Shown one piece after another: positions 22,619 through 56,078 of a stretch of 64,000 nucleotides of DNA; positions within the stretch are counted from its first letter, which is position 1, and the number at the start of each line of letters is the position of its first letter. The stretch covers positions 868,001 to 932,000 of the forward strand of contig NZ_CABPSJ010000001.1 in NCBI RefSeq assembly GCF_902459745.1, written 5' to 3'. The stretch comes from Pandoraea communis (GTDB taxonomy: Bacteria; Pseudomonadota; Gammaproteobacteria; Burkholderiales; Burkholderiaceae). The notes beneath the pieces are model-generated. The model did not search any database. It saw only the letters and a list, made by a program, of their open reading frames with translations, and was not told the origin of the DNA. A program made the translations under genes and the position numbers.

Positions 22619-22638
22619 GCTACGTGCTACTACGTAGC
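22619..22638. promoter_or_regulatory. Inverted repeat GCTACGT-N6-ACGTAGC
   Basis: Perfect 7-bp arms around GCTACT, 42 bases before the sensor kinase ATG. Its core TACGT-N6-ACGTA recurs at 56059-56074 in the control region of another kinase/LuxR-type regulator system. Likely operator for a NarL/LuxR-family response regulator. Confidence 0.5.
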
Positions 22639-22679
22639 CAAATGCTGTGGAACACGGCATTGCAGGCTTTTCGAATGGC

Positions 22680-24065
22680 ATGAATCTCCGACAGAAATTT
22701 TTCGTCCTGGCACTGTTACCGGTCGCATTGGCCATGGTCGCCATCGCGCTGGCCGTACGGCATCAAGGCAACGAGCTTTCGCGCGCGCAGCACGAAGCCG
22801 TGCAAACGACGTCGCTGGCCAACAAGCGGGCCGAGCTGCTGCATTACGTGGGTCTGGCGCGCAATGCCATCGAGCCGCTGTACAACGGCCCCGACACCCC
22901 GGCCGCGCGCGAACAGGCCCTCGCCACCCTTGCCCGCATGGAATTCGGCAAGGACGGCTACTTCTTCGTCTACGATCTCGAAGGCCGCAGCCTGATGCAT
23001 CCGCGTCAACCCGAGCTGGTCGGCCACAACCTCTGGTCGCTCAGGGACGAGTCGGGCGCACCCACCATCCAACGCCTGATCGCAGCGGCACGCGCGGGCG
23101 GCGGCTACGTGCAGTACCCGTGGGAGAAACCGTCCCGCCAGCAAATGACACCGAAGCTCGGCTACGTCATTGCCCTGCCACGCTGGAACTGGATGATCGG
23201 CACGGGCATTTATCTCGACGATGTCGAAGCCACGCTGCGTGAGTCGGACGAGCGCGCGCAGTCGAACATCGATCGCACGCTGATCTGGATCACGCTCATC
23301 GCCTCATCGTGTCTGGCGATCGTCGGCCTGTGCGGGCTCGTCGTGAACATCACCGAACTCAAGACCGCCGACGCGAAGCTGCGCCAACTGGCGCGTCAGG
23401 TCGTGGCGTCGCAGGAACTCGAGCGATCCCGTATCTCGCGCGAGTTGCACGACGGCATCAGCCAGCTTCTGGTCTCGGTCAAGCTGCTGCTCGAGTCGGC
23501 ATCGATGCGCCTGCCGGGCTCACCCGCCGCCGCCAGCACCACGTTGGGCGTTGCCATCGAACGGCTGAACGGCACGCTCGGCGAAGTGCGGCGCATCTCG
23601 CAAGCGTTGCGCCCGGCCATGCTCGACGATCTCGGTCTGGCCGCCGCCATCGATCAGCTCGCACGGGAATTCGGCTCGCACGCGGGGCTTCCGGTCGAAA
23701 TGAATGTCGAAGGCGACGCTCCCGTTCTGGACGACAACATCAAGACGATGCTCTACCGCATCGCACAGGAGGCGCTCACCAACATCGAGCGCCATGCGCA
23801 GGCGTCGCGCGTCTCGATTCTGCTGATCTTCAAAGCCGACGGCATTCATCTGTCGATTGCCGACGACGGACGCGGCTTCGACGTGTCCGACGTGCACCAC
23901 GACCCCCGCCACGGCATCGGCCTGCGCAACATGCGTGAGCGCCTGGACGCCGTCGGCGGCGTACTCGGTATTCAATCGTGGCCCGGCCTTACCACCATCA
24001 GTGTGTGGGTGCCTCTCACGCCTGCCGCCGTGAAAGCGGCGCTTCGTGCAACAACACGCAAATGA
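22680..24065 (+). CDS. Cache-domain sensor histidine kinase (NarX/DegS-like HisKA_3)
   Basis: Membrane sensor of 461 residues. One N-terminal helix (about 7-27), a periplasmic single-cache domain (about 30-198) with the GKDGYFFVYDLEGRSLMHP and NWMIGTGIYLDD segments typical of small-molecule cache sensors, a second helix (about 200-224), then a HisKA_3 dimerisation domain with phospho-His257 in SRELHDGISQ and a HATPase_c domain (DDGRGF, GIGLRNMRER). Overlaps the regulator gene by 4 bases (ATGA). Divergent from cstA, so it probably senses pyruvate or a related organic acid. An in-frame GTG at 22647 is a less likely start. Confidence 0.92.
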   Translation: MNLRQKFFVLALLPVALAMVAIALAVRHQGNELSRAQHEAVQTTSLANKRAELLHYVGLARNAIEPLYNGPDTPAAREQALATLARMEFGKDGYFFVYDLEGRSLMHPRQPELVGHNLWSLRDESGAPTIQRLIAAARAGGGYVQYPWEKPSRQQMTPKLGYVIALPRWNWMIGTGIYLDDVEATLRESDERAQSNIDRTLIWITLIASSCLAIVGLCGLVVNITELKTADAKLRQLARQVVASQELERSRISRELHDGISQLLVSVKLLLESASMRLPGSPAAASTTLGVAIERLNGTLGEVRRISQALRPAMLDDLGLAAAIDQLAREFGSHAGLPVEMNVEGDAPVLDDNIKTMLYRIAQEALTNIERHAQASRVSILLIFKADGIHLSIADDGRGFDVSDVHHDPRHGIGLRNMRERLDAVGGVLGIQSWPGLTTISVWVPLTPAAVKAALRATTRK

Positions 24066-24694
24066 CGCAAGCTCACCCTATCCGATTGCTGCTGATCGAC
24101 GATCACCCGCTCGTTCGCGACGGACTCCGTGCGCGCTTCGACGCCTCGCCCAATCTCCAGGTCGTGGGGGAAGCGGGCAATGCACAGGAAGCGCTCACGC
24201 GAGCGAAAACATCGTCGCCGGATCTCGCGCTGATGGACATCAGCATGCGCGGCACGAACGGCATCGAACTGACGGCACAGTTCCGCGAGCAGTTTCCGCA
24301 CATCGCCGTGTTGATACTCTCGATGCACGACAATGCCGAATACGTGCGTCAGGCGGTTCGTGCCGGTGCACGCGGCTACGTGCTCAAAGACGCGCCTGCG
24401 CACGAGATCGTGACCGCCATCGAACGCGTAGCCCGCGGCGACGCGTACTACAGCGCCGCCATTGCTGCGCGCGTGGTGCAGGCCTCGACGTCGCATGCGC
24501 CAATCGACTCGCTCACGCCCCGCGAACGCGAAATCCTCACGCGTATCGCCTGCGGACTGGCGAACAAACAGATTGCGACGGAAATGGATTTGTCGGTCCG
24601 GACGGTGGAGACCCATCGGCTCAACATCAAGCGCAAGCTCGGCATCGAAGGGCAAGCGGAGTTGATCAAATTCGCGGTGGAGAATCGACTGTAA
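24062..24694 (+). CDS. NarL/LuxR-family response regulator
   Basis: Response regulator of 210 residues: receiver domain with DDH at 13-15 and phosphoacceptor Asp59, and a LuxR-type helix-turn-helix in the last 65 residues (LTPREREILTRIACGLANKQIA, then TVETHRLNIKRKLGI). It is translationally coupled to the cache kinase upstream. Divergent cstA-ybdD is the likely target; the symmetrical motifs at 22505-22638 are candidate sites. Confidence 0.94.
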   Translation: MTQAHPIRLLLIDDHPLVRDGLRARFDASPNLQVVGEAGNAQEALTRAKTSSPDLALMDISMRGTNGIELTAQFREQFPHIAVLILSMHDNAEYVRQAVRAGARGYVLKDAPAHEIVTAIERVARGDAYYSAAIAARVVQASTSHAPIDSLTPREREILTRIACGLANKQIATEMDLSVRTVETHRLNIKRKLGIEGQAELIKFAVENRL

Positions 24695-24725
24695 GGTGTC
24701 GGCGGGGCAATCGCCCGGCATCGAT

Positions 24726-25145
24726 CTACTGGTGAAACGGGTTGTACACCTCCACGCCCGTGCCGGAGAAATCCTTGACGTTACGCGTCACTACAATGAG
24801 TTCGTGAACTAGCGCAGTCGCCGCGATCAACTTATCGACGGGATGCTGTTGATGCGGCACCCGCAGGCGAGCCCACATGTTGCAGACGCTCTGATCGACG
24901 GGGAGAATCTGCTGCAGAAAATCGCGATGCACGGTCTTCACCCAATTGTCCACAAGCGTTGCCTGACGCGGATCGTTGCGGTAACGCAGCAAGAGCGCAC
25001 CACGTCGCAACTCCCCAAGCGTGATGACCGACAGGTAGCGAGGTATCGCGTTTCGCGTCGTGTGACGAATAAATCGTTGCACACCAACGTCACCTCCCCC
25101 TAACTTCCTGCACTCACTGATCACGTTCGTATCGAACAGATACAT
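24726..25145 (-). CDS. vapC: PIN-domain toxin, VapC/FitB type
   Basis: 139-residue PIN nuclease. The four acidic residues of the active site can be placed at Asp5 (LFDTN), Glu45 (LGELRRG), Asp104 (PVDKLIAATA) and Asp125 (NVKDF). Toxins of this type cleave RNA and are held inactive by a DNA-binding antitoxin. The start ATG at 25143-25145 lies 17 bases after the antitoxin stop; an earlier in-frame start at 25166 overlaps that stop. Length and order match FitAB in Neisseria. Confidence 0.92.
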   Translation of the reverse strand: MYLFDTNVISECRKLGGGDVGVQRFIRHTTRNAIPRYLSVITLGELRRGALLLRYRNDPRQATLVDNWVKTVHRDFLQQILPVDQSVCNMWARLRVPHQQHPVDKLIAATALVHELIVVTRNVKDFSGTGVEVYNPFHQ

Positions 25146-25162
25146 TGCAGTACTAAATTGGC

Positions 25163-25369
25163 TCAATTGACACGTTCGAAATCGCTGTCGAGTCCGACGT
25201 TAGGGAAATTCATGATCGCTTCCCCGATACATCGGAACCCCGGTAGTCTCGCCACGTTATCCAGAATCGACAACACCTCTTCCTCCGGCGTTCTCCCATG
25301 CAATGCCGCACGCGATCGAATCGATCGCATAAGCGGTTCATCAATCCCCTCGATCAGCATCATGTGCAT
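25163..25369 (-). CDS. vapB: FitA-like ribbon-helix-helix antitoxin
   Basis: 68-residue antitoxin. The N-terminal half (LIEGIDEPLMRSIRSRAALHGRTPEEEVLSIL) looks like the Arc-type ribbon-helix-helix of FitA antitoxins, and the C-terminal half would wrap the PIN toxin encoded next. A GGAGG precedes the ATG at 25369 (a second ATG lies three codons in). The pair probably represses its own promoter. Confidence 0.85.
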   Translation of the reverse strand: MHMMLIEGIDEPLMRSIRSRAALHGRTPEEEVLSILDNVARLPGFRCIGEAIMNFPNVGLDSDFERVN

Positions 25370-25510
25370 ATGCCCCTCCCTTCATTCATAAACAAAAATC
25401 GGCGTCCGAATTGAACACCCGAACAACAGGGGAAATGCTAGCACCGGAGAACTTTCGAAAACCGGCCAAGACCTCGCCCGGTGCAGCTTTCGGAAGGATC
25501 ACAAGGCAAT

Positions 25511-25544
25511 AAAAAAATCCCACCGAGGTTTTCCTCGATGGGAT
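25511..25544 (-). terminator. Rho-independent terminator of pckG
   Basis: On the minus strand a 12-bp stem with one mismatch (arms 25533-25544 and 25517-25528, loop AAAA) is followed by seven T residues. It lies 80 bases beyond the pckG stop. Confidence 0.9.
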
Positions 25545-25625
25545 CGTATGGTGCACCCGTTGGCGCTACCGCCGATACCGGCGATCGCACAGGGTCAGTG
25601 CACTATCGCTGCGATATCTGACGAA

Positions 25626-27512
<1,887 letters not shown>

Positions 27513-28073
27513 GGGGGTTGTCTCCATGCAGAGTCGGGAAATCGATGCGGACGACGGGCGTCTGTTGCGCGGGCACCCTGGATCGCCGGGCGACCCATCC
27601 GGTTGGGGATACCGGACAGGCGGACGTGCCCCGGCGGTTGCCGCAGGCGCTGGCAATCCAGGCGCTCGCAGGTTCAGGCCGCGTGAAAAATGGTGTGTGT
27701 TGTACGTCTTGCGACACACGCAGCAACACACGCGGGAAGGCAGAGGGCAACACGCGCATCGATACGTGCGCTTCAAGCGTCTCGTTCACCAGGTCCGACT
27801 TGTGTGTACGGGGTGGATTCGATTTTTTGCCATCGTGTTCAGGCGGTTTCGCCATGGTTGCCAGGACACCTGCCATACTATGCAAAACGAGGCGTCAGCA
27901 TACCACCGCGCAAATCGCACCGGTGCTGCGTCGCAACAAGGCCGGCGGGGGATTTGCCCCGATAGACGCCGTCCATGTCAACGACCAGAACACCCGCCCG
28001 TGCGGCGGCCTCCGACAATTGTTCCGTCCGCGCAGGACTCCCCGGTTCCGCGCCGATCCGATTACGTTTTGCC
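27513..28073. other. Divergent intergenic region pckG / 2-hydroxyacid dehydrogenase
   Basis: 561 bases with no gene I can support. An imperfect dyad centred near 27713 has perfect 8-base arms GTGTGTTG (27695-27702) and CAACACAC (27724-27731), with further GTGTG/CACAC symmetry between. On the minus strand TTGCTG and TACAAC 16 bases apart overlap this dyad and could be a weak pckG promoter with a leader of about 180 bases. A 69-codon minus-strand frame at 27878-28087 overlaps the next gene and is probably not real. Confidence 0.4.
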
Positions 28074-29084
28074 ATGAAAATTGCCATTCTCGACGACTAT
28101 CAGGACGCCGTTCGCAAGCTCGACTGCTTCTCCCTGTTGGCCGGTCATGACGTCAAGGTCTTCAACAACACGGTCAAAGGCGTCGGGCAACTCACTGCCC
28201 GCGTCGGCGAAGCCGAAGTGCTCGTGCTGATCCGCGAACGCACCGCCGTCACGGCGCAGCTCATCGACAAACTGCCGCGTCTGCGGATCATCAGCCAGAC
28301 CGGGCGCGCCGGCACTCACATCGACATCGACGCCTGCACCGCCCATGGCGTGGCTGTGCTCGAAGGCGTGGGCTCGCCCATCGCACCCGCCGAACTTACC
28401 TGGGCGCTGATCATGGCCGCCCAGCGCCGCATTCCGCAGTACGTCTCCAGCCTCAAGCACGGCGCCTGGCAGCAATCGGGCCTGAAATCGTCGAGCATGC
28501 CGCCGAACTTCGGGCTGGGTCAGGTACTTCGCGGCCAGACGCTCGGCCTCTGGGGCTACGGCAAGATCGGCCGCCTCGTGGCAGGCTACGGCCGCGCATT
28601 CGGCATGGAGGTGATGGTGTGGGGCCGCGAGGGTTCGCGTGAAGCTGCCGCGGCCGACGGCTTGCGCGTGGCGAACAGCAAGGAAGAACTCTTCACGCAA
28701 AGCGATGTGCTCTCGCTGCACCTGCGTCTGAACGACGAGACGCGTCACCTCGTCAAACTCGAAGATCTGCTGCAGATGAAACAGACCGCCCTGTTCGTGA
28801 ACACGAGCCGGGCCGAACTGGTGGAAGAAAACGCGCTGATCACGGCACTGAACCGCGGCCGTCCGGGCATGGCGGCCATCGATGTCTTCGAGAGCGAGCC
28901 GATTCTGCAAGGCAACCCGCTGCTGCGTCTGGAGAATTGCGTGTGTACGCCGCACATCGGCTATGTCGAGCGTGAGAGCTACGAGCTGTATTTCCGCGTA
29001 GCTTTCCAGAACATCGTCGACTTCCTGAACGGCGACCGCACTCACGTCGCGAATCCGGCTGCGTTGCTCGGCTTCGGTCGATAA
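28074..29084 (+). CDS. D-2-hydroxyacid dehydrogenase family protein
   Basis: NAD(P)-dependent oxidoreductase of 336 residues related to phosphoglycerate dehydrogenase and hydroxypyruvate reductase. It has the Rossmann GYGKIG at 161-166, the catalytic Arg246 (NTSRAELV), Glu275 (FESEP) and His294 (TPHIGY), with the two-domain arrangement of the family. Substrate not predictable; it could act on glyoxylate, hydroxypyruvate or another 2-oxoacid. ATG 28074 fits the family start MKIAILDDY; an in-frame extension to 27975 is not conserved. Confidence 0.9.
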   Translation: MKIAILDDYQDAVRKLDCFSLLAGHDVKVFNNTVKGVGQLTARVGEAEVLVLIRERTAVTAQLIDKLPRLRIISQTGRAGTHIDIDACTAHGVAVLEGVGSPIAPAELTWALIMAAQRRIPQYVSSLKHGAWQQSGLKSSSMPPNFGLGQVLRGQTLGLWGYGKIGRLVAGYGRAFGMEVMVWGREGSREAAAADGLRVANSKEELFTQSDVLSLHLRLNDETRHLVKLEDLLQMKQTALFVNTSRAELVEENALITALNRGRPGMAAIDVFESEPILQGNPLLRLENCVCTPHIGYVERESYELYFRVAFQNIVDFLNGDRTHVANPAALLGFGR

Positions 29085-29094
29085 CGCCGCCGCA

Positions 29095-29120
29095 CACGCC
29101 TCGCGCAACGGCGAGGCGTG
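29095..29120. terminator. Hairpin terminator between convergent genes
   Basis: Perfect 10-bp stem CACGCCTCGC (29095-29104) / GCGAGGCGTG (29111-29120) with a 6-base loop, in the 38-base gap between the dehydrogenase stop and the patatin stop. T-tracts are short, so efficiency is uncertain. Confidence 0.6.
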
Positions 29121-29122
29121 CG

Positions 29123-29971
29123 CTATTTCATCGTGTCCAGATGACGCAGGAACGCCTCGCCGTCCTTGCGGCCCAGCGCGAATGCCGGGCCCATCATGTC
29201 GGGGCGCGTGTAATCCCAACTGGAAATCGGTACGGGCACGCTTGGCTGCACATATAGCCGGTCTTGTCCGCCGTGATGCTGCGTGAAGATCTGCGGACGC
29301 GGATAGCGCCGCGTCACCAGCACAAGCACCTGGCCGGGCGTGGCATCGAGCGCGTCGACGGGCACGTTGTCGACCATGCCGCCATCGAGCACGGCCCGCC
29401 CGTCGCGACGGAGAATCGGTGTGAACGGCGGCGTACAGGACGATTGCAGCATCAGATCGGCCAGATCCCCGGTGGACCGGCAATCCTGCGCGCGCACGAA
29501 TTCGGGAGTGAAGCCAAGCCGGCGGGCGAGCGTCGGATGCAGCGTACGACGCACGTGCTTGTCGATGTTGTAGGCCACCAGCGCTGCCGCCGTGGCCGTG
29601 CGCGGCCCGAGCCAGCGCGGGATGTGCGACACGCCGACGCGAATCTCCGGCCCGGCGGCGAGCTTGTCGAGCTGGCCCTCATAAATGTCGAGCAGCGCCT
29701 GCCGGTAGATGCGGTAATGCGGAAACACCCGCTCACGGCGCAGCAGGTTGCCCCAGTAGGCGTTCTTGCGATTGTTCGCGAGTGCCCGCCGGTAATAGTC
29801 CATCACCCAGTCCGACTCGCGCATGTGCAGCATGCACGCGGTGGCGGCACCGGCCGATATCCCGGTGATGACGCGCGGGCGCAGCGGCACCTCGCGCGCG
29901 ACGCGCTCCCAGAATCCCGCCTGCCACCAGCAACGGTTGCCGCCGCCGGCGAATACGATCTGATCGAACAC
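29123..29971 (-). CDS. Patatin-like phospholipase
   Basis: 282-residue lipid acyl hydrolase. Oxyanion-hole glycines GGGN at 9-12, nucleophile Ser39 in GISAG, and catalytic Asp196 in DGG form the patatin Ser-Asp dyad. No signal peptide or membrane helix is visible, so a cytosolic or membrane-surface enzyme is likely. Substrate unknown. It reads in the same direction as the thioesterase gene 56 bases upstream and may share its transcript. Confidence 0.9.
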   Translation of the reverse strand: MFDQIVFAGGGNRCWWQAGFWERVAREVPLRPRVITGISAGAATACMLHMRESDWVMDYYRRALANNRKNAYWGNLLRRERVFPHYRIYRQALLDIYEGQLDKLAAGPEIRVGVSHIPRWLGPRTATAAALVAYNIDKHVRRTLHPTLARRLGFTPEFVRAQDCRSTGDLADLMLQSSCTPPFTPILRRDGRAVLDGGMVDNVPVDALDATPGQVLVLVTRRYPRPQIFTQHHGGQDRLYVQPSVPVPISSWDYTRPDMMGPAFALGRKDGEAFLRHLDTMK

Positions 29972-30027
29972 CTGGCCCCCTTCGGTGATATCGCGTTATC
30001 GACGTTGAGCGTCTTGCAACGGTGCGC

Positions 30028-30429
30028 TCAAAGCAGCGCGTAGGTCGTGGTGGCGTGCACCGCCATCTTGCCCGACGCATCGAGAATCTCGATCTCGCCG
30101 AACACCAGATTCTTGCCGCGACGCAGAATCCGCGCGATCACGCGCAAATCGCCCTCGGCCACCGGACGCATGAACTGCGTGTTGAGCGTGACGGTCGTCA
30201 TTGGCTGGAAACCGCCAAGCGAGGCCGAGAGCGCCACCACCATGGCCGTGTCGGCCACGGCCATGAAGACCTGTCCGCAGATGACGCCGCCGCCATGTTT
30301 GAACGCGGCGTCGAACGGCAATCGCAATTCGCTTTGTTCCGGCCCGGTCGCCTCCACTTGCAGATTGAGTTGTCGCACCCACGGCGCGACGAGTTCATCG
30401 AGCATCTTCTGCGCCTGCACCCGCTCCAT
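30028..30429 (-). CDS. PaaI-type hotdog thioesterase
   Basis: 133-residue hotdog-fold protein. The segment FDAAFKHGGGVICGQVFMAVADTAM holds the His-Gly-Gly and acidic residue typical of PaaI-like acyl-CoA thioesterases. Substrate unknown. The ATG at 30427-30429 is preceded by GGAGGGGCGGG, a strong ribosome-binding site; longer in-frame forms to 30495 are unlikely. Confidence 0.87.
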   Translation of the reverse strand: MERVQAQKMLDELVAPWVRQLNLQVEATGPEQSELRLPFDAAFKHGGGVICGQVFMAVADTAMVVALSASLGGFQPMTTVTLNTQFMRPVAEGDLRVIARILRRGKNLVFGEIEILDASGKMAVHATTTYALL

Positions 30430-30471
30430 CCCGCCCCTCCTCCAAGTTCGTTGTGACGCCGATGATAGCCC

Positions 30472-30507
30472 CAAAACAACAGCGCCACCCGGCAAAGGGT
30501 GGCGCTG
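30472..30507 (-). terminator. Rho-independent terminator of the 30541-31128 gene
   Basis: Minus-strand stem of 11 perfect pairs (arms 30497-30507 and 30480-30490, loop of 6) followed by TTGTTTTGG, 34 bases after the stop of the upstream gene. Confidence 0.88.
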
Positions 30508-30540
30508 GCGTCATGCGCGTGATCCGCAATCAGCGGCAAC

Positions 30541-31128
30541 TCATCCGTTCGTCTTGTCCTGATGAATTCGCTCGCTTTGATGATTTTCGCGATGCTGGAT
30601 ACCGGCCTGCTCGCCCTTGCTCACATGACCGTTCTTGCCCGCGTGCGCTTCGGCGGTGTCGACATGGGCCTGCCCGCGCTCAAGACTACCGGCCTGGCGA
30701 TTATTCAACGTGCCGGCGGCCTGTCCCTGAGCGATGCGCTTTTCCTGGTTGACGTTACGTTGCACGTCGGCCTGCATGCGCTCCGACGACTTCGACGTGG
30801 GATTCACCACCTGACCGTTGTGCTTGAGCTGATCGATCTTCGCGCTTTCCTTGTTCTGCGCGTTGGCGATGCGTGCCTTCTCGGCGGCGGTATCTCCCGT
30901 GTGAGCGGCATGGGCTTGCATGCGGTCGATCTTCGCCTCGCCCTTCTCGATGCTCGACGCTTCCTTGGTCGTCAGTTGACCGCTCTTCAGTCCGTTCTCG
31001 ACGCGCTGCTGTTGATGGATGTCGCGCGCCGTCTCGGTGGTGGTGCTTTGCGCAAACGCCTGCGAGGCGAACACACCGCCGAGGGCAACCGTCACGGCAC
31101 TCAGAATCAGCGTTTTACGAACATTCAT
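30541..31128 (-). CDS. Exported protein with internal duplication, unknown function
   Basis: 195-residue protein. Residues 1-27 form a signal peptide (SQAFAQ cleavage site). The mature part is hydrophilic and helical, and two copies of a roughly 38-residue unit are visible at about 37-74 and 126-163: each has Q-x(2)-R-[VI], a small-residue turn, then S-[IL]-E-[KR]-G-[EQ]-A and an acidic, Ala/His-rich end. I do not recognise a named function; similar duplicated small exported proteins occur in Burkholderiaceae. The ATG 31128 gives the signal peptide; a longer frame to 31176 does not. It has its own terminator. Confidence 0.8.
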   Translation of the reverse strand: MNVRKTLILSAVTVALGGVFASQAFAQSTTTETARDIHQQQRVENGLKSGQLTTKEASSIEKGEAKIDRMQAHAAHTGDTAAEKARIANAQNKESAKIDQLKHNGQVVNPTSKSSERMQADVQRNVNQEKRIAQGQAAGTLNNRQAGSLERGQAHVDTAEAHAGKNGHVSKGEQAGIQHRENHQSERIHQDKTNG

Positions 31129-46677: not shown

Positions 46678-48173
46678 AGGTCATGATCGCGCGAATGAAT
46701 CACGAGACGAACACATTCTCGCCGGTGCCCACACCGCTCGAAGCCTTCGGCAATCACGGACCGACGTACGACGAGGCCGCCTATCGCGACAACAAAGGCA
46801 TGCGCACGGCGATGGCCGCGTTCATCGACCTGGCCGAAGCCGCAGGCGCCGAAATGGTGACGCCCGTCTCCGCCAGCGCCAATCCGAGTGGCCCGGTGGC
46901 GGCCAGCGCCTATGACGAACTGTGCCGCCGGATCGTGGCGGCGGCAAGCGGCGTCGACGCCATCCTGCTCGATCTGCATGGCGCGATGGTCGCCGAGAAC
47001 AGCGACGACGGCGAAGGCGATTTGCTCGAACGCGTGCGCGCAGTGGCGCCCGGCACGCCGATTGCCGTGGCCCTGGACCTTCATTCGAACATCACACCGA
47101 AGATCGTGACCCATGCGGATATCGTCGTGGGCTTCAAGACATACCCTCACATCGACATGTACGAAACCGGCGAGCACGCCGGACGGCTTCTCTTTGAGAG
47201 GCTCGCAGGCAAGCGCCGCCCCAAGGTGGTGTGGCAACAGCCGCCGCTGATGGTGCACACGCTGCGCAGCACCAGTCACGGCGGCGCGATGAAACGCGCC
47301 CTCGACGCCGCGCGGCGGGCCGAAGCCGAGGAGGGCATCCCGGCGGTGTCGGTGTTCTCCGGCTTCTCGCTCGCCGACATACCCGCGCCGTGCATCAGCG
47401 TCGTGGTCACAGCGGACGACGGCGAGGCGGGCGTGGCGCGTGCGCAGGCTGTCGCGGACCGTATCGCGGCACAGATCTGGGACGAACGCGACGGCTTCGT
47501 CTATCGCAGCGCACCGCTGGCCGAATCGATTGCGCAAGCGAAGCAAATGGCCGACGGTGCCGACAAGCCGGTGCTGCTGCTCGATCACAGCGACAACTGC
47601 ATGTCGGGCGGCACCTGCGACACGATGGACGTGCTCGAAGCCGCACTCGCGGGTGGCCTCACGGGCATCGGCGTCGGTCCGCTGTGCGACCCGGAAGCAG
47701 TGGCGACGTTGATCGCCGCAGGCGAGGGCGCCGAAGTCACGCTGGCCGTCGGCAACAAACGGCCGATGCCGCAATTGGGCATTACCAAGACGCCCCCGGT
47801 CCTCACGGGCATCGTGCGCAAGATCGGCGATGGCGAATACGTCGTCACCGGACCGACGTACACGGGCCAACGCTGCTACATGGGACGCACGGTGCTGTTC
47901 GATATCGGTCCGGCGCGTATTGTCGTGACGGAACGCACGCACGAGGCGTGGGACCACGGCGTCTTCACCTGCGTTGGCCTCGATCCGCGCAGCGAACGCT
48001 TCCTGCTGCTCAAGTCGCGCATGTATTGCCGTCCGGTGTTCGTGCCGATCTCGGCAGGGCTCGTCGAATGCGATAGCGACGGCGTGACGAGTTCGAATTA
48101 CGCGCTGTTCCCGTTCTCGCACCTGAACCGTCCGGTGTATCCGCTGGATCGGGAGGTGAAGTTCGGCGGATAA
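46674..48173 (+). CDS. M81-family (MlrC-like) metallopeptidase homologue
   Basis: 499-residue protein of the M81/MlrC family, named for microcystin-degrading enzyme MlrC but widespread with unknown substrates. N-terminal M81 domain (about 1-290) with MNHETNTFSP and the Asp/His-rich DLHSNITPKIVTHADIVVGFKTYPHIDMYETG metal region; C-terminal MlrC domain with DHSDNCMSGGTCDT near 305. Translationally coupled to the carbamoylase. A joint role in splitting an imported amide, ureide or cyclic compound is inferred. Confidence 0.9.
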   Translation: MKVMIARMNHETNTFSPVPTPLEAFGNHGPTYDEAAYRDNKGMRTAMAAFIDLAEAAGAEMVTPVSASANPSGPVAASAYDELCRRIVAAASGVDAILLDLHGAMVAENSDDGEGDLLERVRAVAPGTPIAVALDLHSNITPKIVTHADIVVGFKTYPHIDMYETGEHAGRLLFERLAGKRRPKVVWQQPPLMVHTLRSTSHGGAMKRALDAARRAEAEEGIPAVSVFSGFSLADIPAPCISVVVTADDGEAGVARAQAVADRIAAQIWDERDGFVYRSAPLAESIAQAKQMADGADKPVLLLDHSDNCMSGGTCDTMDVLEAALAGGLTGIGVGPLCDPEAVATLIAAGEGAEVTLAVGNKRPMPQLGITKTPPVLTGIVRKIGDGEYVVTGPTYTGQRCYMGRTVLFDIGPARIVVTERTHEAWDHGVFTCVGLDPRSERFLLLKSRMYCRPVFVPISAGLVECDSDGVTSSNYALFPFSHLNRPVYPLDREVKFGG

Positions 48174-48182
48174 GTATGCGGT

Positions 48183-48203
48183 GGCGGGCCTTCACGGCCC
48201 GCC
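48183..48203. terminator. Hairpin between convergent M81 and amiE genes
   Basis: Perfect 8-bp stem GGCGGGCC / GGCCCGCC with a 5-base loop in the 35-base gap between two convergent stops. There is no T-tract, so it may be a weak or Rho-assisted end. Confidence 0.45.
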
Positions 48204-48208
48204 CCCAC

Positions 48209-49670
<1,462 letters not shown>

Positions 49671-49722
49671 CTCCGCCTCCTGTTGTCCTATCTCGTGAGT
49701 GATGCGCGTGACGCACGCCGCG

Positions 49723-50961
49723 TCAGCCCTTCACCAGATCCGGCGAACACGGCATGTCGACGCTACCCGTCACATGACGAATCGGTCCGTCGGCATTCGG
49801 ACGGATGTCGAAGTCGAAGATCTGCGTCGGCAACCACAACGTCGCACACGCATTCGGAATGTCGACCACGCCGCTGATATGCCCCTGCACCGGCGCACAA
49901 CCGAGCAACGAGTACGCCTGTGCCCCCGAGTAGCCGAACTTCTTTAGATACTCGATGGCGTTCAGACACGCTTGACGATAGGCGAGCGTGACATCCAGAT
50001 AGTGCTGCCCGCCCTGCTCGTCGACCGAGATACCCTCGAAGATCAGATAGTCGTTGTACGCCGGCGTGATGGGACTCGGCTGGAACACCGGATTGCGAAT
50101 GCCGTATTTGGCCATGCCGCCTTTGATCACGTTGACACGCATGTGCACCCACCCCGCCATCTCGATGGCGCCGCAGAACGTGATCTCACCGTCCCCCTGA
50201 CTGAAGTGAAGGTCGCCCACAGACAGCCCTGCGCCATCGACATACACCGGGAAGAAAACCTTCGAGCCGCGCGAGAGATCCTTGATGTCGCAGTTCCCAC
50301 CATGCTCGCGCGGCGGCACCGTGCGCGCGCCTTCGGCGGCAGCCTTGTTGCGCGCGTCGCCCGTCAGCTTGCCCATATGCGCCGTCGCGGCGAACGGCGG
50401 GTTGGCCAGCGGCGGCACGCGGTCCGGCGCCGTCGCGATCAGGCCGACCTCGCGCTCGTTCCACGTCTGAAGCAATTTCGGATCCGGCAGACAGCCGATC
50501 AGTCCCGGGTGAATCAGTCCGGCGAAATTCACGCCCGGAATATGCCGCGAACTCGTGTAAAGCCCGTGGAAATCCCAGATCGACTTCTGCGCATGCGGAA
50601 AATGATCGGTCAGAAAGCCACCGCCGTTCGTCTTCGAGAAGAAGCCGTTGAAGCCCCACTGACTGTCCTGCTTCGCGCCGATGTCGAGTAGATCGACGAC
50701 CAGCAGATCGCCGGGCTGCGCGCCATGCACGCCCACCGGCCCCGAGAGAAAATGCACAATCGACAGGTCGATATCGCGAACATCGTCGGCGCTGTCGTCG
50801 TTCTTGATGAAGCCGCCGGTCCAGTCGTATGTCTCGAGAATGAAGTCGTCGCCGGGATTCACCCAGCACGCCATCGGGATGTCCGGATGCCAACGGTTAT
50901 GCACCTGCTCGTTTTCATACGCGGATTGGTTCAGGTCGACCTTGATGAGAGTTTCGGCCAT
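49723..50961 (-). CDS. fmdA: Formamidase
   Basis: 412-residue acetamidase/formamidase family enzyme that hydrolyses formamide to formate and ammonia. Diagnostic stretches: RWHPDIPMACWVNPGDDF near 23-40, VGVHGAQPGDLL near 77-90, and EHGGNCDIKDLSRGSKVFFPV near 220-240. ATG 50961 follows GGAGCGAG; in-frame frames to 51018 are longer than the family. It lies between the urea/amide transporter and fmdB. Confidence 0.95.
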   Translation of the reverse strand: MAETLIKVDLNQSAYENEQVHNRWHPDIPMACWVNPGDDFILETYDWTGGFIKNDDSADDVRDIDLSIVHFLSGPVGVHGAQPGDLLVVDLLDIGAKQDSQWGFNGFFSKTNGGGFLTDHFPHAQKSIWDFHGLYTSSRHIPGVNFAGLIHPGLIGCLPDPKLLQTWNEREVGLIATAPDRVPPLANPPFAATAHMGKLTGDARNKAAAEGARTVPPREHGGNCDIKDLSRGSKVFFPVYVDGAGLSVGDLHFSQGDGEITFCGAIEMAGWVHMRVNVIKGGMAKYGIRNPVFQPSPITPAYNDYLIFEGISVDEQGGQHYLDVTLAYRQACLNAIEYLKKFGYSGAQAYSLLGCAPVQGHISGVVDIPNACATLWLPTQIFDFDIRPNADGPIRHVTGSVDMPCSPDLVKG

Positions 50962-50984
50962 TGCACTCGCTCCTGGTTTCAAAT

Positions 50985-51026
50985 GCCGGTGCCAGACACC
51001 GGCGATCAATGACGCCACGCGGCGTC
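50985..51026 (-). promoter_or_regulatory. Two hairpins between urtE and fmdA
   Basis: A 7-bp stem GCCGGTG/CACCGGC (50985-51003) and a 6-bp stem GACGCC/GGCGTC (51011-51026) occupy most of the 68-base gap between the transporter genes and fmdA. They may process the transcript or set different expression of transport and enzyme genes. Confidence 0.4.
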
Positions 51027-51029
51027 GGA

Positions 51030-51719
51030 TTACACGGAGAGGTATTCGCGTATGCGCCCGGCATCGCCGGTGTCCCGCGTGCTCTGATGAACGAAGCGCC
51101 CGCCCTCGATAACGAACAGTCGGTCCGCCACGTCCATCGCGAAACTCAGCACCTGCTCGGAAACGACCACGGCGATGTTGCGCGTCGCGCGAATGTGATT
51201 GAGCGCCCGGGCAATGTCCTTGATGACGGACGGCTGAATCCCCTCGGTCGGCTCGTCGAGCAGCAGTACCTTGGGATTGGTCGCGAGCGCGCGCGCAATG
51301 GCGAGTTGTTGCTGCTGTCCGCCGGAGAGATTGCCGCCCTTGCGGCGGCGCATGTCGAACAGCACGGGAAACAACGCGTAGAGATCGTCGGGAACGGACT
51401 GACTCGCCGCATTCTCGAGCCCGGTCTGGATGTTCTCTTCGACGGTGAGCGATGCAAAAATCTGGCGGCCCTGCGGAACGTAACCGATCCCCTTGGCCAC
51501 GCGCCGGAAGCTCTCCTCCCTCGACACGTCGACACCGTCCACACGAACGGTGCCGCGATTCGCGGGCAACATGCCGATCAACGACTTGAACAACGTTGTT
51601 TTGCCCATCCCGTTGCGGCCCATCACCGCAACGCTTTCGCCGCTGGCGACGGAAAAGCCGATGCCGTGCAGCACCTCGCTCTGGCCATAGCTGACGACAA
51701 GATCATCGACTTCCAACAT
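51030..51719 (-). CDS. urtE: Urea/short-chain amide ABC ATP-binding protein UrtE
   Basis: 229-residue ATPase. Walker A GRNGMGKTT near 35-43, an LSGGQQQQLAIARAL signature, Walker B LLLDEPTEGIQPSVI. The GMGKTT variant and EGIQPSVI stretch are typical of UrtE. Partner of UrtD in the importer; 14 bases after it. Confidence 0.94.
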   Translation of the reverse strand: MLEVDDLVVSYGQSEVLHGIGFSVASGESVAVMGRNGMGKTTLFKSLIGMLPANRGTVRVDGVDVSREESFRRVAKGIGYVPQGRQIFASLTVEENIQTGLENAASQSVPDDLYALFPVLFDMRRRKGGNLSGGQQQQLAIARALATNPKVLLLDEPTEGIQPSVIKDIARALNHIRATRNIAVVVSEQVLSFAMDVADRLFVIEGGRFVHQSTRDTGDAGRIREYLSV

Positions 51720-51733
51720 GATGTGTCCTCCGA

Positions 51734-52477
51734 TCAGTGTCCGAGATAAACATCGATCACACGCGGGTCGGATTGCACCTTGGCCATCGGGCCCTCGGCG
51801 AGAATCTTTCCCTGATGCATCACGGTGACCTTGTGCGCAATCCGCTCGACGAAAGCCATGTCGTGCTCGATGACGATCATTGAGCGGTTGCGACAGATTC
51901 GATCGAGCAGCTCAGCCGTCAGCTCGCGCTCGCGCACGCTCATACCGGCAATCGGCTCATCCAGCATTAAAAGTTCGGGATCCTGCATAAGAAGCATACC
52001 AATTTCCAGCCACTGCTTCTGTCCGTGCGACAGCAAACCGGCTTCGAGGTCGAGCAAGGCCGACAGACCGATCTCTTCAGCAACGGATCGGACACGATCC
52101 GCAACCTCGCTATCCGTGCGGTAGAAAAGCGCACCGAACACGCCGCGCCCACGCGGGAACGACACTTCGAGGTTCTGCGCGACGCTCAGGTTTTCGTAGA
52201 TCGACGGCGTCTGAAACTTGCGGCCTATCCCCTTGTGCACGCGTCTGAACTCGGCCAGTCGCGTGATTTCCTCGTTGCGAAACTTGATGCTGCCCGCCGT
52301 CTCCTTCGTCTTGCCGCAGATAAGATCGAGCAGCGTCGTCTTGCCGGCGCCGTTGGGACCGATCACGACACGCAACTCACCACGCTCCAGATACAGATTC
52401 AGGGAATCGATCGCCTTGAACCCATCGAACGAAACAGTGAGATCTTCTATCGCCAGAAGAAAGTCGGTGTTGCTCAT
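51734..52477 (-). CDS. urtD: Urea/short-chain amide ABC ATP-binding protein UrtD
   Basis: 247-residue ATPase with Walker A GPNGAGKTT near 40-48, an LSHGQKQWLEIGMLLMQ signature and LLMLDEPIAGMSVRE, the usual UrtD variant. It overlaps urtC by 4 bases and precedes urtE. Confidence 0.94.
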   Translation of the reverse strand: MSNTDFLLAIEDLTVSFDGFKAIDSLNLYLERGELRVVIGPNGAGKTTLLDLICGKTKETAGSIKFRNEEITRLAEFRRVHKGIGRKFQTPSIYENLSVAQNLEVSFPRGRGVFGALFYRTDSEVADRVRSVAEEIGLSALLDLEAGLLSHGQKQWLEIGMLLMQDPELLMLDEPIAGMSVRERELTAELLDRICRNRSMIVIEHDMAFVERIAHKVTVMHQGKILAEGPMAKVQSDPRVIDVYLGH

Positions 52478-53658
52478 GCTTTACGCTCCCTTTCTGCCTT
52501 GCTCCCGGCGCCGAGAAAACGGCGAATTCGCGGGCGCACATGCGCATCGAAAAGACCGGCCAGACCGTTCGGGAAGGCCATCACCACGCCGATGAACATG
52601 GCCGCCATCAGATACAGCCAGAGGTTGGGGAAACTCTCGGAGAACCAGCTCTTGCCCAGATTGACGAGAATCGCGCCGTACACCGCGCCGACAAGAGACA
52701 TACGTCCGCCGACCGCCGCATAAATCACCATCTCGATGGACGGCACGATGCCCACGAACGACGGCGACATGAAACCGACCTGAAGCGTGAACATCGCGCC
52801 GCCGATCGCAGCGAGCAACGCGGCGAAGCAGAACGAGAACACCTTGAACATCGAGACGTCGTAGCCCGAGAACCGCACGCGGTCCTCCTTGTCTCGCATG
52901 GCCAGCAGCAGCGTACCGAGCTTGCCGCGCTGCACCCACCGGCACAGCAGCAACGCGACGATCAGCAACGCCGCGTTGACAAAGTAAAGAACGAGCTTCG
53001 CGTGGTCCGTGCGAATGTCCCAGCCGAGCAGCGTGCGCAGATCGGTGATGCCGTTCACCCCACCGGTATATCCCTGTTGGCCGATGATGAGCACCGACAG
53101 AATCAGCGCGACGGCCTGCGTGATGATGGCGAAATACACGCCGCCGACCCGCCGTTTGAACATCGCGTAACCGATCACGAAGGCAAGCGCCGTCGGCACG
53201 ACGAGCACCGCGAGGATCGAGAACGGCAGATAGTGAAACGGCTTCCACCAATCCGGCAGCGCGGTGAGCTGATTCCAGTCCATGAAGTCCGGAATGCCCG
53301 GGGTGGTCTGCGTGCTCGTGGCTGCGGCGCTCGACGCTTCGAGCTTGAGAAACATCGCCATCGCATACCCGCCAAGCCCGAAGAAGACGCCCTGCCCGAG
53401 ACTGAGCACGCCGCCGTAACCCCATGCGATCACCAGTCCGACGGCGACGAATGCATACGTCAGGTACTTGCCCATGAGGTTCAGGCGAAACGCGTCGAGC
53501 GCGAGCGGAAACACGACGACGATGAGCACGGCCAGTATCACGATGCCCGCGTAGCCCGAAGCATCGAAGCGCGCCAGCATTGCGCGCCAGCCGACGGGCG
53601 GGACGGGGGCCTCGGCTCGGAGGGAGACGCCGCCCGCCGAGGTTTGGATGGGTTCCAT
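52474..53658 (-). CDS. urtC: Urea/short-chain amide ABC permease UrtC
   Basis: 394-residue inner-membrane permease with about ten hydrophobic segments and a GYGGVLSLGQGVFFGLGGYAMAM motif near residue 80-100; the EAS...GIPDFMD insert near 107-125 is typical of UrtC. ATG 53658 has GGAG at the right distance; an ATG two codons upstream is too close to the ribosome-binding site. Confidence 0.93.
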   Translation of the reverse strand: MEPIQTSAGGVSLRAEAPVPPVGWRAMLARFDASGYAGIVILAVLIVVVFPLALDAFRLNLMGKYLTYAFVAVGLVIAWGYGGVLSLGQGVFFGLGGYAMAMFLKLEASSAAATSTQTTPGIPDFMDWNQLTALPDWWKPFHYLPFSILAVLVVPTALAFVIGYAMFKRRVGGVYFAIITQAVALILSVLIIGQQGYTGGVNGITDLRTLLGWDIRTDHAKLVLYFVNAALLIVALLLCRWVQRGKLGTLLLAMRDKEDRVRFSGYDVSMFKVFSFCFAALLAAIGGAMFTLQVGFMSPSFVGIVPSIEMVIYAAVGGRMSLVGAVYGAILVNLGKSWFSESFPNLWLYLMAAMFIGVVMAFPNGLAGLFDAHVRPRIRRFLGAGSKAERERKA

Positions 53659-53716
53659 GTACATCTCTCCATACAGAGGAATCGGTCGACGACCGGGACA
53701 CCGGCGCACCGGCGAA

Positions 53717-54634
53717 TCACACGCGCCGGACTTTCGAGGCGAACAGGCCCTGCGGGCGCAGCATTAGAATGACCACTACGGTGAGGAGCGTCACCACGCG
53801 GGCAATCGAACCGGAAAGGAAAAACTCGCTGATCGACTGCATCTGCGCAATGCCGAAGGCCGAGGCCACCGTGCCGAGCAGGCTCGCCGCACCGCCGAAC
53901 GTCACCACCAGGAACGAATCGACGATATAGAGCGAGCCGCTGGTCGGCCCTGTCGACCCGATGGCCGTGAACGCCGCACCGGCGACGCCGGCGATGCCGC
54001 AGCCGATCGCGAATGTCATCCGGTCGGTGCGGCGGGTATTGATGCCCGCCGCATTTGCCATCGGCCGGTTGGCGACGGTCGCGCGCACACGCAGCCCCCA
54101 ACGCGAGCGGTACAGCGCCAGCAACAGGCCGCCCGTCATGACGAGCGCGAGCGCCATCACGAACATGCCGCTCACCGGAATGTCGAGACCGGGTGCCGGC
54201 TCCCACGACCCCATGAGCCAGTCGGGCAGCGCCGGGCTGACTTCTTTCGGTCCGAACGTCGAACGGAACACTTGCTGCATGCCCAGACTCAGGCCCCAAG
54301 TAGCGAGCAACGTGTCGAGCGGACGCCGGTACAGATGCCGGATCAGCGCCCATTCCGCCAGCCATCCCGCCCCGAAGGCGAGCACGAAGGCAGCGACGAT
54401 GGCGAAGAAGAAATACACGGGCGCGAATACCGGCCAGACGTTCTGGGTGACCCACGAGAACATGTAGACGGTATAGGCGCCGATGGTCATGAATTCGCCG
54501 TGCGCCATGTTGATGACGCCCATCTGCCCGAAGATCACGGCCAGTCCGAGCCCCATGAGCAGCAGAACGCTGAACAGGCGCAGTCCCGCAAAGCCTTGCA
54601 TCAGCGTGATATTGAAAATGTCGTTGGCGGACAT
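53717..54634 (-). CDS. urtB: Urea/short-chain amide ABC permease UrtB
   Basis: 305-residue permease of the UrtB type with seven to eight helices, LMGLGLAVIFGQMGVINMAHGEF near 27-49 and the TNRRLRVRAT-like coupling stretch (residue about 180, here SRWGLRVRATVANRPMANAAGI). Second gene after the binding protein, separated from it by a strong hairpin. Confidence 0.93.
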   Translation of the reverse strand: MSANDIFNITLMQGFAGLRLFSVLLLMGLGLAVIFGQMGVINMAHGEFMTIGAYTVYMFSWVTQNVWPVFAPVYFFFAIVAAFVLAFGAGWLAEWALIRHLYRRPLDTLLATWGLSLGMQQVFRSTFGPKEVSPALPDWLMGSWEPAPGLDIPVSGMFVMALALVMTGGLLLALYRSRWGLRVRATVANRPMANAAGINTRRTDRMTFAIGCGIAGVAGAAFTAIGSTGPTSGSLYIVDSFLVVTFGGAASLLGTVASAFGIAQMQSISEFFLSGSIARVVTLLTVVVILMLRPQGLFASKVRRV

Positions 54635-54646
54635 CTGACGCTCCTC

Positions 54647-54672
54647 GCGCGACGACCGTCCGGTCGTCGCGC
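54647..54672 (-). promoter_or_regulatory. Intercistronic hairpin between urtA and urtB
   Basis: A perfect 11-bp stem GCGCGACGACC / GGTCGTCGCGC with loop GTCC in the 55-base gap after the binding-protein gene. There is no T-tract. It is placed like the hairpin at 41879-41902 in the other ABC operon and probably protects urtA mRNA or limits read-through. Confidence 0.65.
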
Positions 54673-54689
54673 CTGTGCGGGTTGAGGGA

Positions 54690-55964
54690 TTACATGTAGC
54701 CCTTCGGGAACGGATCCGGATGGATCGGCTCCGGCGAACTCGCCACGACCTTGAACTGTCCGTCCGCCTGCCCTTCGCCGATCAGCGATCGGCTCCACAG
54801 GTGATGGTTCGGATCGACCTTCGCGTAGCCCTGGGGTGCGTTGGGCAGTTCAATGCCCGCAGACGCGGCGACCACCTTGTTCACGTCGAAGCTGCCCGCG
54901 CGCTCGCACGCGGCCTTCCAGATCCAGGGGCCGAGGTAGGCCGCCTGTGTCACGTCGCCGATCACCGATTTCGCGCCGTAACGCGCCTTGAATGCGGCGA
55001 CGAACTTCTTGTTGTTGTCGTTATCCAGCGACTGGAAGTACTTCATCGACGAGTAGAAGCCTGCGAAGTTTTCGCCGCCGATACCCAGCACTTCGTCTTC
55101 CGTGACGGAAAGGGTCAGCAGGAATTGCTTCTGGGGCGTGATGCCCGCTGCCTTGAGTTGCTTGTAGAACGCCACGTTCGAGCCCCCCACCACCGTCGCG
55201 AAAATGCAGTCGGGACGTGCGAGCTTGATCTTGTTCATCAGCGAATTGAACTCGGTCGTGCCGAGCGGGTAATACTCTTCGCCGACCACCTTCGCGTGAA
55301 GATGCTGCTCGATATGACGGCGCGCGATCTTGTTCGACGTGCGCGGCCAGATGTAGTCGGAGCCGATCAGGAAGAACGTCTTGGCCTTCTTCGTGTTCGA
55401 CGCCCAGTCGAGCGCCCAGAGAATCTGCTGCGTGGCTTCCTGACCGGTATAGAAGACGTTCTTCGACTGCTCCAGACCTTCATAGAACGTCGGGTAGTAC
55501 AGCAAGCCGTTGTCCTTCTCGAACACCGGCAGCACCGCCTTGCGCGAGGCCGACGTCCAGCAACCGAAAACGGCCGCGACGTGGTCGTTCTCGAGCAGCT
55601 TCTTGGATTTCTCGGCGTAGGTCGGCCAGTCGGATGCACCGTCTTCCTGAATGATGTTGATCTTACGTCCGAGCACACCGCCCATCGCATTGATCTGTTC
55701 GATGGCAAGACGCTCTGCCTGAATCGAGCCCGTCTCGGAGATCGCCATCGTGCCGGTTGCCGAGTGCAACTGGCCGACCGTGACCGTGGTGTCGGTCACG
55801 GCGAGGCCGGTGGTGTTCACCTTGGCCGTCGGCGGCACCTGTGCGAACGACGTTCGCGGCAGGCCCAGCGCCACGAGCGGGGCCGCGGCGAGGCCGCCGA
55901 GCAACCGCCTGCGCAACGGCGAAGCCATGCGCTCGTCATCTTCGAATCGATCGTCTGCGGACAT
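54690..55964 (-). CDS. urtA: Urea/short-chain amide ABC binding protein (UrtA/FmdD-like)
   Basis: 424-residue periplasmic binding protein. After an acidic N-terminus comes RRRLLGGLAAAPLVALGLP, an export signal with twin-Arg character, ending near SFAQ. The mature domain has GQLHSATGTMAISETG, EDGASDWPTYAEKSKKLL and YWP/YYP-type aromatic contacts (LLYYPTFYEGLEQSKNVFYTG) typical of UrtA/FmdD binding urea or amides. ATG 55964 follows GGAG by 6 bases; the in-frame GTG at 55967 is weaker. First gene of the operon; diverges from the permease-kinase gene. Confidence 0.93.
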   Translation of the reverse strand: MSADDRFEDDERMASPLRRRLLGGLAAAPLVALGLPRTSFAQVPPTAKVNTTGLAVTDTTVTVGQLHSATGTMAISETGSIQAERLAIEQINAMGGVLGRKINIIQEDGASDWPTYAEKSKKLLENDHVAAVFGCWTSASRKAVLPVFEKDNGLLYYPTFYEGLEQSKNVFYTGQEATQQILWALDWASNTKKAKTFFLIGSDYIWPRTSNKIARRHIEQHLHAKVVGEEYYPLGTTEFNSLMNKIKLARPDCIFATVVGGSNVAFYKQLKAAGITPQKQFLLTLSVTEDEVLGIGGENFAGFYSSMKYFQSLDNDNNKKFVAAFKARYGAKSVIGDVTQAAYLGPWIWKAACERAGSFDVNKVVAASAGIELPNAPQGYAKVDPNHHLWSRSLIGEGQADGQFKVVASSPEPIHPDPFPKGYM

Positions 55965-56054
55965 CACGTTCTCCTGATCATAGGCCCTGTGCGAGAAGCG
56001 CGGCGGGCGGGTTTCACGGGTTTGAACGCAATGTAGGGAGCCAATTTGACGATC

Positions 56055-56078
56055 GGAATACGTCGATTGACGTATTCC
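56055..56078. promoter_or_regulatory. Long inverted repeat in the urtA / permease-kinase control region
   Basis: Perfect 10-base arms GGAATACGTC and GACGTATTCC around GATT, 91 bases upstream of urtA ATG and 85 bases upstream of the kinase ATG. Its core TACGT-N6-ACGTA also occurs at 22621-22636. Best candidate binding site for the LuxR-type regulator at 59560, serving both divergent genes. Confidence 0.65.

What the first reader, a model, noticed from the sequence alone, without database searches (positions are those of the whole stretch)
22619..56078. Same palindromic core, TACGT-N6-ACGTA, in two unlinked kinase/LuxR-regulator control regions
The cstA/cache-kinase divergent region (22621-22636) and the urtA/permease-kinase divergent region (56059-56074) both contain TACGT-N6-ACGTA, with longer arms in each (7 and 10 bases). 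Ten fixed bases are expected by chance about 0.06 times in 64 kb (64000/4^10, uniform base use). Both copies lie between a transport operon and a kinase gene paired with a NarL/LuxR-type regulator. This suggests the two systems use related operators or cross-talk.
Basis: partly seen in the sequence, partly recalled or inferred. Interest (0 to 1): 0.72.

Follow-up and report, generated by a model that had tools for sequence, protein, structure and literature searches.

The report
Two transporter switches, look-alike operators
Two short palindromes in this bacterium look like real landing sites for two different sensor-regulator pairs, one beside a pyruvate-type transporter gene and one beside a urea transporter gene; they share an outer core, probably because both regulators belong to the same large family, but their inner bases differ in a way that suggests each site serves its own system.

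Summary
TACGT-N6-ACGTA occurs exactly twice in the window and only twice in the 5.7-Mb Pandoraea genome. Both copies are conserved, operator-like sites.

Site 1 (22621-22636) goes with an MctSR-like cache kinase/LuxR pair and its transporter. In 64 of 74 cstA upstream regions an operator-like site (0-2 mismatches) precedes a conserved promoter, 22 bp away in 60, with a half-site between. Where cstA lies apart from the kinase, the site is at cstA (8 of 8). In 6 genomes MctP takes cstA's place beside the site.

Site 2 (56059-56074) lies between urtA and a permease-like hybrid kinase; 58 of 62 loci with divergent urtA have an exact site. A -10-like hexamer starts 23 bp from the operator on the urtA side (29 of 33 distinct sequences) and 23 or 24 bp away on the kinase side (32 of 37).

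Both have the 16-bp 7-2-7 geometry of NarL operators, which explains the shared form; the recognition helices differ. Inner positions 6/11 are R/Y in 45 of 45 cst sites and Y/R in 78 of 85 urt sites. Related operators: yes. Cross-talk: no evidence, and inner bases argue against it. Binding is inferred.

The parts
22621..22636 (.). Site 1: MctR-like operator TACGTGCTACTACGTA, 7-2-7 inverted repeat (TACGTGC-TA-CTACGTA)
   Evidence: exact pattern in 28 of 28 close Pandoraea loci; in 63 more distant loci 17 exact, 33 within one mismatch; promoter layout
22608..22614 (-). Conserved half-site TGCGTAG between the palindrome and the -35-like box of cstA
   Evidence: RCGTAG present in the gap in 64 of 64 scored promoters; conserved block in alignment
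22593..22598 (-). cstA -35-like box TTGTGG, 22 bp from the operator
22570..22575 (-). cstA -10-like box AATACT, 17 bp from the -35-like box
20247..22313 (-). cstA, carbon starvation protein of the pyruvate/proton symporter type
   Evidence: Pfam PF02554 879.8 bits; NCBIfam CstA 1157.6 bits, just below its cut-off of 1188
22680..24065 (+). MctS-like sensor kinase (sCache_2, HisKA_3, HATPase)
   Evidence: NCBIfam MctS 447.1 bits, below the cut-off of 700
24062..24694 (+). MctR-like response regulator (receiver + GerE), recognition helix TVETHRLN
   Evidence: NCBIfam MctR 236.5 bits, below the cut-off of 300
56059..56074 (.). Site 2: urea-system operator TACGTCGATTGACGTA, 7-2-7 inverted repeat within a 10-bp-arm palindrome (56055-56078)
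   Evidence: exact pattern in 66 of 80 loci of related regulators, and in 10 of 10 Pandoraea loci with the kinase
56030..56035 (-). urtA -10-like box TACATT, 23 bp from the operator
   Evidence: TANNNT at offset 23 in 29 of 33 distinct single-site sequences with divergent urtA, at no other offset within 40 bases
56097..56104 (+). kinase -10-like region TGTAATTT, 22-24 bp from the operator
   Evidence: TANNNT at offset 23 (26) or 24 (6), 32 of 37 distinct sequences; sequences
54690..55964 (-). urtA, urea ABC transporter substrate-binding protein
   Evidence: TIGR03407 527.2 bits, cut-off 492.75
56163..59597 (+). hybrid kinase with an N-terminal permease-like membrane half, HisKA, HATPase and receiver
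   Evidence: no Pfam match of the N-terminal half at E 1e-3
59560..60546 (+). response regulator (receiver + GerE) of the urea system, recognition helix TVNKHLEH

Best explanation
The two palindromes are separate operators for two separate NarL/FixJ-type response regulators, each coded beside its site. Site 1 is bound by the MctR-like regulator (24062-24694) after phosphorylation by the cache kinase. It activates the divergent cstA promoter from about -65, helped by a conserved half-site near -48. The likely signal is pyruvate or a related monocarboxylate. Site 2 is bound by the regulator at 59560-60546 after phosphorylation by the permease-like hybrid kinase. It lies about 43 bp upstream of the inferred urtA start and at a similar distance from the inferred kinase start, so one operator can switch on urea uptake and its own sensor in both directions. 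The sites look alike because this regulator family reads two 7-bp half-sites with TAC at their outer ends, separated by 2 bp. The inner bases (positions 6/11) keep the two systems apart. Shown by computation: the sites, their conservation, the fixed promoter spacing, their link to the transporter genes and the inner-base difference. Inferred: binding, activation, start sites, signals and insulation.
For: Among all 1024 palindromic 5-N6-5 patterns, TACGT ranks first in 63 cache-kinase upstream regions outside the close Pandoraea group (17 exact, 33 within one mismatch; next is its variant TGCGT with 10 and 23) and, separately, in 76 urt loci (63 exact; next 12). An operator-like site with 0-2 mismatches, a gap of 22 bp in 60 cases, and TTG-N20-AWTACT occur together in 64 of 74 cstA upstream regions, with RCGTAG in the gap in 64 of 64. 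In 8 genomes whose cstA is not directly beside the kinase (6 at 41 kb or more, 2 at about 1.3 kb) the site is at cstA with 0-1 mismatch in 8 of 8, and the best match in the 250 bases before the kinase has 3-4 mismatches in 8 of 8. In 7 genomes with the site but no cstA at E 1e-100, the divergent gene is MctP above cut-off in 6, and 5 of 7 printed upstream regions show the same layout. urt system: exact site in 58 of 62 loci with divergent urtA; in Pandoraea the 10 of 32 genomes with the kinase are exactly the 10 with TACGTCGATTGACGTA. Inner positions 6/11: R/Y in 45 of 45 cst sites, Y/R in 78 of 85 urt sites. Geometry: the engineered NarL 7-2-7 site TACCCCTAAAGGGGTA is 16 bp (PMC4549865, passages); heptamer TACYYMT (PMC4886647, passages).
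Against: No binding or expression data. 10 of 74 cstA upstream regions miss the scored promoter pattern. 30 of 63 distant kinase upstream regions have no site within one mismatch. 14 of 80 urt-regulator loci lack the exact site. 7 of 85 urt sites break the inner-base rule and 5 of these look like the cst type, so the discriminator is not absolute. Both NCBIfam scores for MctS/MctR lie below their cut-offs. Four TACGTC-N4-GACGTA places in Pandoraea are not at the urt kinase: two in G006 and one in G026, which lack it, and a second in G002. Related loci are not independent samples.
Confidence: 0.83

Rival explanations
1. The two systems cross-talk: one or both regulators bind both operators, coupling carbon and urea uptake.
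For: The outer ten bases are identical and these are the only two exact copies in the genome. Five urt sites from Methylophaga and a related unnamed bacterium have a cst-like inner pair.
Against: Inner positions 6/11 differ in the large majority, recognition helices differ, the cst operator is present in Pandoraea genomes without the urt kinase, and promoter layouts differ.
Confidence: 0.1
2. A third, unlinked transcription factor binds both sites and the neighbouring regulators act elsewhere.
For: The same core lies at two loci; no binding test is available. Some loci keep Asn in the helix yet lack the site (L105, L106, L110).
Against: In Pandoraea the urt-type site TACGTCGATTGACGTA occurs only in the genomes with the kinase (10 of 10 against 0 of 22). 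In three Methylobacterium loci the arms read TACGC while the helix reads TVTKH instead of TVNKH. In rhizobial MctSR loci the repeat reads TACCC and the helix has Lys instead of Leu.
Confidence: 0.05
3. Chance recurrence of a short palindrome with no function.
For: Ten fixed bases only; with one mismatch allowed the window shows no further match.
Against:: conserved far beyond chance at both loci separately.
Confidence: 0.01

Closest known systems
NarL 7-2-7 operators (E. coli)
   Same: 16-bp inverted repeat, TAC at the outer ends, 2-bp centre; receiver + GerE regulators. NarL is the best-scoring solved relative of the site 1 regulator by sequence.
   Different: Half-site TACGTNN instead of TACYYMT; different target genes and recognition-helix residues.
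MctSR / MctP of Rhizobium
   Same: Cache kinase + LuxR regulator beside a transporter; a 7-2-7 repeat in the same loci; best NCBIfam names for P0001 and P0008. In six Burkholderiaceae genomes MctP stands in cstA's place beside an orthologous kinase and site.
   Different: Rhizobial repeats are TACCC-N6-GGGTA (8 of 11 alphaproteobacterial loci); in the window the target is CstA; family scores are below cut-off.
CrbR ACTU motif (Pseudomonas) and RpuR direct repeat (Sinorhizobium)
   Same: Transporter-type sensor kinases with response regulators and conserved promoter motifs for acetate or pyruvate uptake genes (PMC5715377 and PMC9100948, passages).
   Different: None of the ACTU matches listed in the passages seen carries TACGT-N6-ACGTA; the RpuR motif is a direct repeat.
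FixJ-type activator promoters
   Same: Operator just upstream of a -10 with a weak or absent -35 (resemblance recalled, not tested).
   Different: FixJ site sequences were not compared here.

Membership tests
NarL/FixJ-type response regulator operator | Inverted repeat of two 7-bp half-sites 2 bp apart (16 bp) | tested here: met
   the inner bases of the arms are not always complementary
NarL/FixJ-type response regulator operator | Linked receiver + GerE regulator | tested here: met
NarL/FixJ-type response regulator operator | Half-site matches NarL TACYYMT | tested here: not met
   TACGTGC / TACGTCG; consensus from PMC4886647
NarL/FixJ-type response regulator operator | Bound by the regulator | not testable with these tools
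   no binding assay
MctSR system | NCBIfam MctS/MctR equivalog cut-offs | tested here: not met
   447.1 of 700 and 236.5 of 300 bits
MctSR system | Controls a monocarboxylate transporter next to it | tested here: inconclusive
   Window neighbour is CstA; in 6 of 7 genomes with the site but no cstA at E 1e-100 the neighbour is MctP; control itself not shown
Urea uptake (urt) regulation | UrtA family cut-off met for the divergent gene | tested here: met
   TIGR03407 527.2 of 492.75 bits

The most novel reading that the evidence does not exclude
Two only distantly related NarL/FixJ-type regulators have converged on the same TACGT half-site and are insulated by the inner pair (positions 6/11). Changes of one helix residue go with changes of the half-site: Leu to Lys at the NarL Lys192 position with TACGT to TACCC in the MctR family, Asn to Thr at the Lys188 position with TACGT to TACGC in the urt family. 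This would be a simple readable recognition code for a very large regulator family.
Probability: 0.3. Interest if true: 0.62.

Novelty: new member of a known kind. Interest (0 to 1): 0.5.

Why it matters
It proposes an operator, promoter layout and target for two widespread transporter/sensor pairs for which my searches found no published operator, which lets their regulons be predicted from sequence. It also gives matched natural variants of regulator helix and operator, which make the DNA-recognition rules of the NarL/FixJ family directly testable. The caution for genome reading is that identical short cores in one genome can reflect a shared regulator family and need not mean shared regulation.

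Tried and rejected
Rejected: chance; a word frequent in this genome, or a third exact target in it. The 57 places per strand with up to one mismatch (the two exact ones included) are fewer than the 114 of the control pattern, so they were not used as a regulon. Exact sites elsewhere in Pandoraea relatives: 10 proteins from 8 of the 16 relative loci fetched were scanned at E 1e-5 and gave no common theme (M20 peptidase, SSF symporter, MFS, JmjC, lumazine synthase, GGDEF, two TPS-domain proteins, LysR, one without match). Six proteins beside three of four fetched near-match sites of the own genome included no kinase or LuxR regulator. No paper naming the exact core was found in the held open-access library; searches for the two systems listed none that I recognised as describing these operators, but I read only listings there. 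A search for NarL contact residues found nothing useful, so the role of Lys188/Lys192 in DNA contact is recalled; the residue alignment is and the native numbering is recalled. The PMC12997753 passages seen gave no site sequence.

Results against a simple helix-operator code: L105, L106 and L110 keep Asn (TANKH, TINKH) yet lack the site; L102 (TVKKQ) and seven TVHKH loci also lack it; L229, L242 and L243 have ETHRK helices but no TACCC repeat in the stretch held, though in L242 and L243 the transporter genes run the other way. The covariation may be single events in related lineages. The TACCC repeats lie at or just after the end of the regulator gene, and in L225 and L227 are followed by T-rich sequence, so some could be terminators instead.

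Rows dropped: the 9 paralogue loci L176-L184 were left out of the 63-region test, and 4 of 80 loci (L066, L101, L102, L104) were left out of the 76-locus test. The spacing count included 8 single-site loci without divergent urtA; one search repeats it without them.
Full report
Observation. TACGT-N6-ACGTA is at 22621-22636 and 56059-56074. Dinucleotide shuffles of the window give 0.01 exact matches on average, never two. The whole genome (5,708,603 bases, 17 contigs) has exactly these two, against 8 for the backward control. The nearest named relative of the site 2 regulator is from Pandoraea horticolens (98% identity).

Site 1. The site lies between cstA (minus strand) and a cache-domain kinase followed by a receiver-GerE regulator. 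The kinase has a match at E 1e-60 in 32 of 32 Pandoraea genomes (4 of them only 51-55% identical) and at E 1e-80 in 133 of 200 genomes drawn from the family. I fetched 100 loci, not every match. The 28 with a kinase at least 80% identical all carry the exact operator pattern; of all 100, 45 do. Of 63 more distant ones (9 paralogues left out), 17 carry it exactly and 33 within one mismatch, the best of all 1024 palindromic patterns of this shape. The intergenic alignment shows a conserved block from the operator to a -35/-10 pair reading toward cstA. A scripted count found an operator-like site (0-2 mismatches), a gap and TTG-N20-AWTACT in 64 of 74 cstA upstream regions: gap 22 in 60, 23 in 1, and 32 in 3. 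In the three gap-32 cases (L133, L156, L192) the script chose a one-mismatch match shifted by 10 bases; another one-mismatch match lies at gap 22. RCGTAG lies in the gap in 64 of 64. The 10 misses are L157, L158, L163, L167, L196, L197, L198, L200, L201 and L224. L163 shows the same elements with one extra base. L224, from Pseudomonas mandelii, has an exact palindromic operator followed by TACGTAGTT but no scored promoter.

The site follows the transporter. Of 21 genomes whose kinase has no cstA directly beside it, 8 have cstA at E 1e-100: 6 at 41 kb or more from the kinase and 2 about 1.3 kb away. In all 8 the site is upstream of cstA (5 exact, 3 with one mismatch), and the 250 bases before the kinase hold nothing better than 3-4 mismatches. 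Of the other 13 genomes, 7 have a site at the kinase with 0-1 mismatch and 6 do not. In 6 of those 7 the neighbouring gene is MctP, 742-756 bits against a cut-off of 625; for the seventh (L249) the one ORF tested matched nothing. The printed upstream sequences of L246, L247, L248, L249 and L250 show operator, a TTACGTA half-site, CTTGT and AATACTAC in the same order; L251 and L252 differ.

Site 2. Of 80 loci of related regulators (the best 80 of 382 confirmed), 66 carry an exact site upstream of the kinase (47 single, 19 double). Among 62 with a UrtA match on the opposite strand (39-100% identity), 58 do. The four without are L105 and three Methylobacterium loci (L107, L108, L112), which have TACGCGATTTTGCGTA instead. 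Of the 18 loci without divergent urtA, 8 have the site and 10 do not. The site reaches Oxalobacteraceae (two copies in 19 loci), Methylophaga and one Acetobacteraceae locus. In single-site loci with divergent urtA, a TANNNT hexamer begins exactly 23 bases beyond the operator on the urtA side in 29 of 33 distinct sequences, and at no other offset within 40 bases; on the kinase side it begins at 23 in 26 and at 24 in 6 of 37 distinct sequences, and at no other offset. I infer an activator-dependent promoter on each side of one operator.

Why they look alike. Both sites are 16 bp with TAC outer ends and inverted symmetry, the geometry called 7-2-7 for NarL (PMC4549865 and PMC4886647, passages seen). 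The recognition helices are not alike: TVETHRLN at site 1 and TVNKHLEH at site 2. The inner pair at positions 6/11 is R/Y in 45 of 45 exact cst sites and Y/R in 78 of 85 urt sites. The 7 exceptions are L074, L078, L079, L082, L088, L096 and L100, six Methylophaga and one unnamed gammaproteobacterium; 5 of them are A/T, like some cst sites.

Linked change of regulator and operator. In rhizobial MctSR-type loci an inverted repeat TACCC-N6-GGGTA lies at or just after the end of the regulator gene in 8 of 11 alphaproteobacterial loci examined; in 6 of the 8 the next annotated genes are an MctP operon or TRAP genes, and 2 records carry no annotation. Their helix has ETHRK instead of ETHRL. That Leu/Lys position aligns with NarL Lys192 (native numbering recalled). 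In three Methylobacterium loci TVTKH goes with TACGC. Seven TVHKH loci lack the exact site, but so do three loci that keep Asn (L105, L106, L110) and one TVKKQ locus. These are few evolutionary events with exceptions, so they are a lead.

What is not shown. No binding, phosphorylation, start site or expression was measured. Signals are inferred from the transporters: CstA imports pyruvate in E. coli (PMC5847655, title and start of abstract in the listing) and UrtA is a urea-binding family. MctS and MctR equivalog cut-offs are not met, so the pair is called MctSR-like.

Judgement. A true observation with a sound operator interpretation and an unsupported cross-talk inference. The finding is a well-conserved pair of operators of a known kind, with a testable recognition rule.

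Noticed in passing
window 56163-59597 (hybrid kinase), between the permease-like half and the kinase: A cysteine-rich stretch (CAICEHAF...CPAYGGTICSLCCSLDSRCHDRC) sits between the membrane part and the kinase; it could bind a metal and matched no Pfam family at E 1e-3.
   Followed up: no
L072, L075, L077, L080, L081, L084, L086, L087, L089, L091-L093, L095, L097-L099, L101, L103, L111: These 19 loci (mostly Herbaspirillum, also Collimonas and one other Oxalobacteraceae) carry two copies of the urt operator 128-279 bp apart, one nearer urtA and one nearer the kinase.
   Followed up: partly
L246-L248, L250-L252: The divergent partner of the cache kinase is MctP instead of CstA, suggesting exchange of one monocarboxylate transporter for another under the same regulator.
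   Followed up: partly
L225-L228, L240, L241, L244, L245: Rhizobial MctSR-type loci have a NarL-like TACCC-N6-GGGTA palindrome at the end of the regulator gene; ATCTTGT begins 26 bases beyond it in 5 of 8. An operator or, in some, a terminator.
   Followed up: partly
L221 and L222, position 2001: Exact TACGT-N6-ACGTA about 320 bp upstream of TPS-domain protein genes in two Pandoraea genomes.
   Followed up: no
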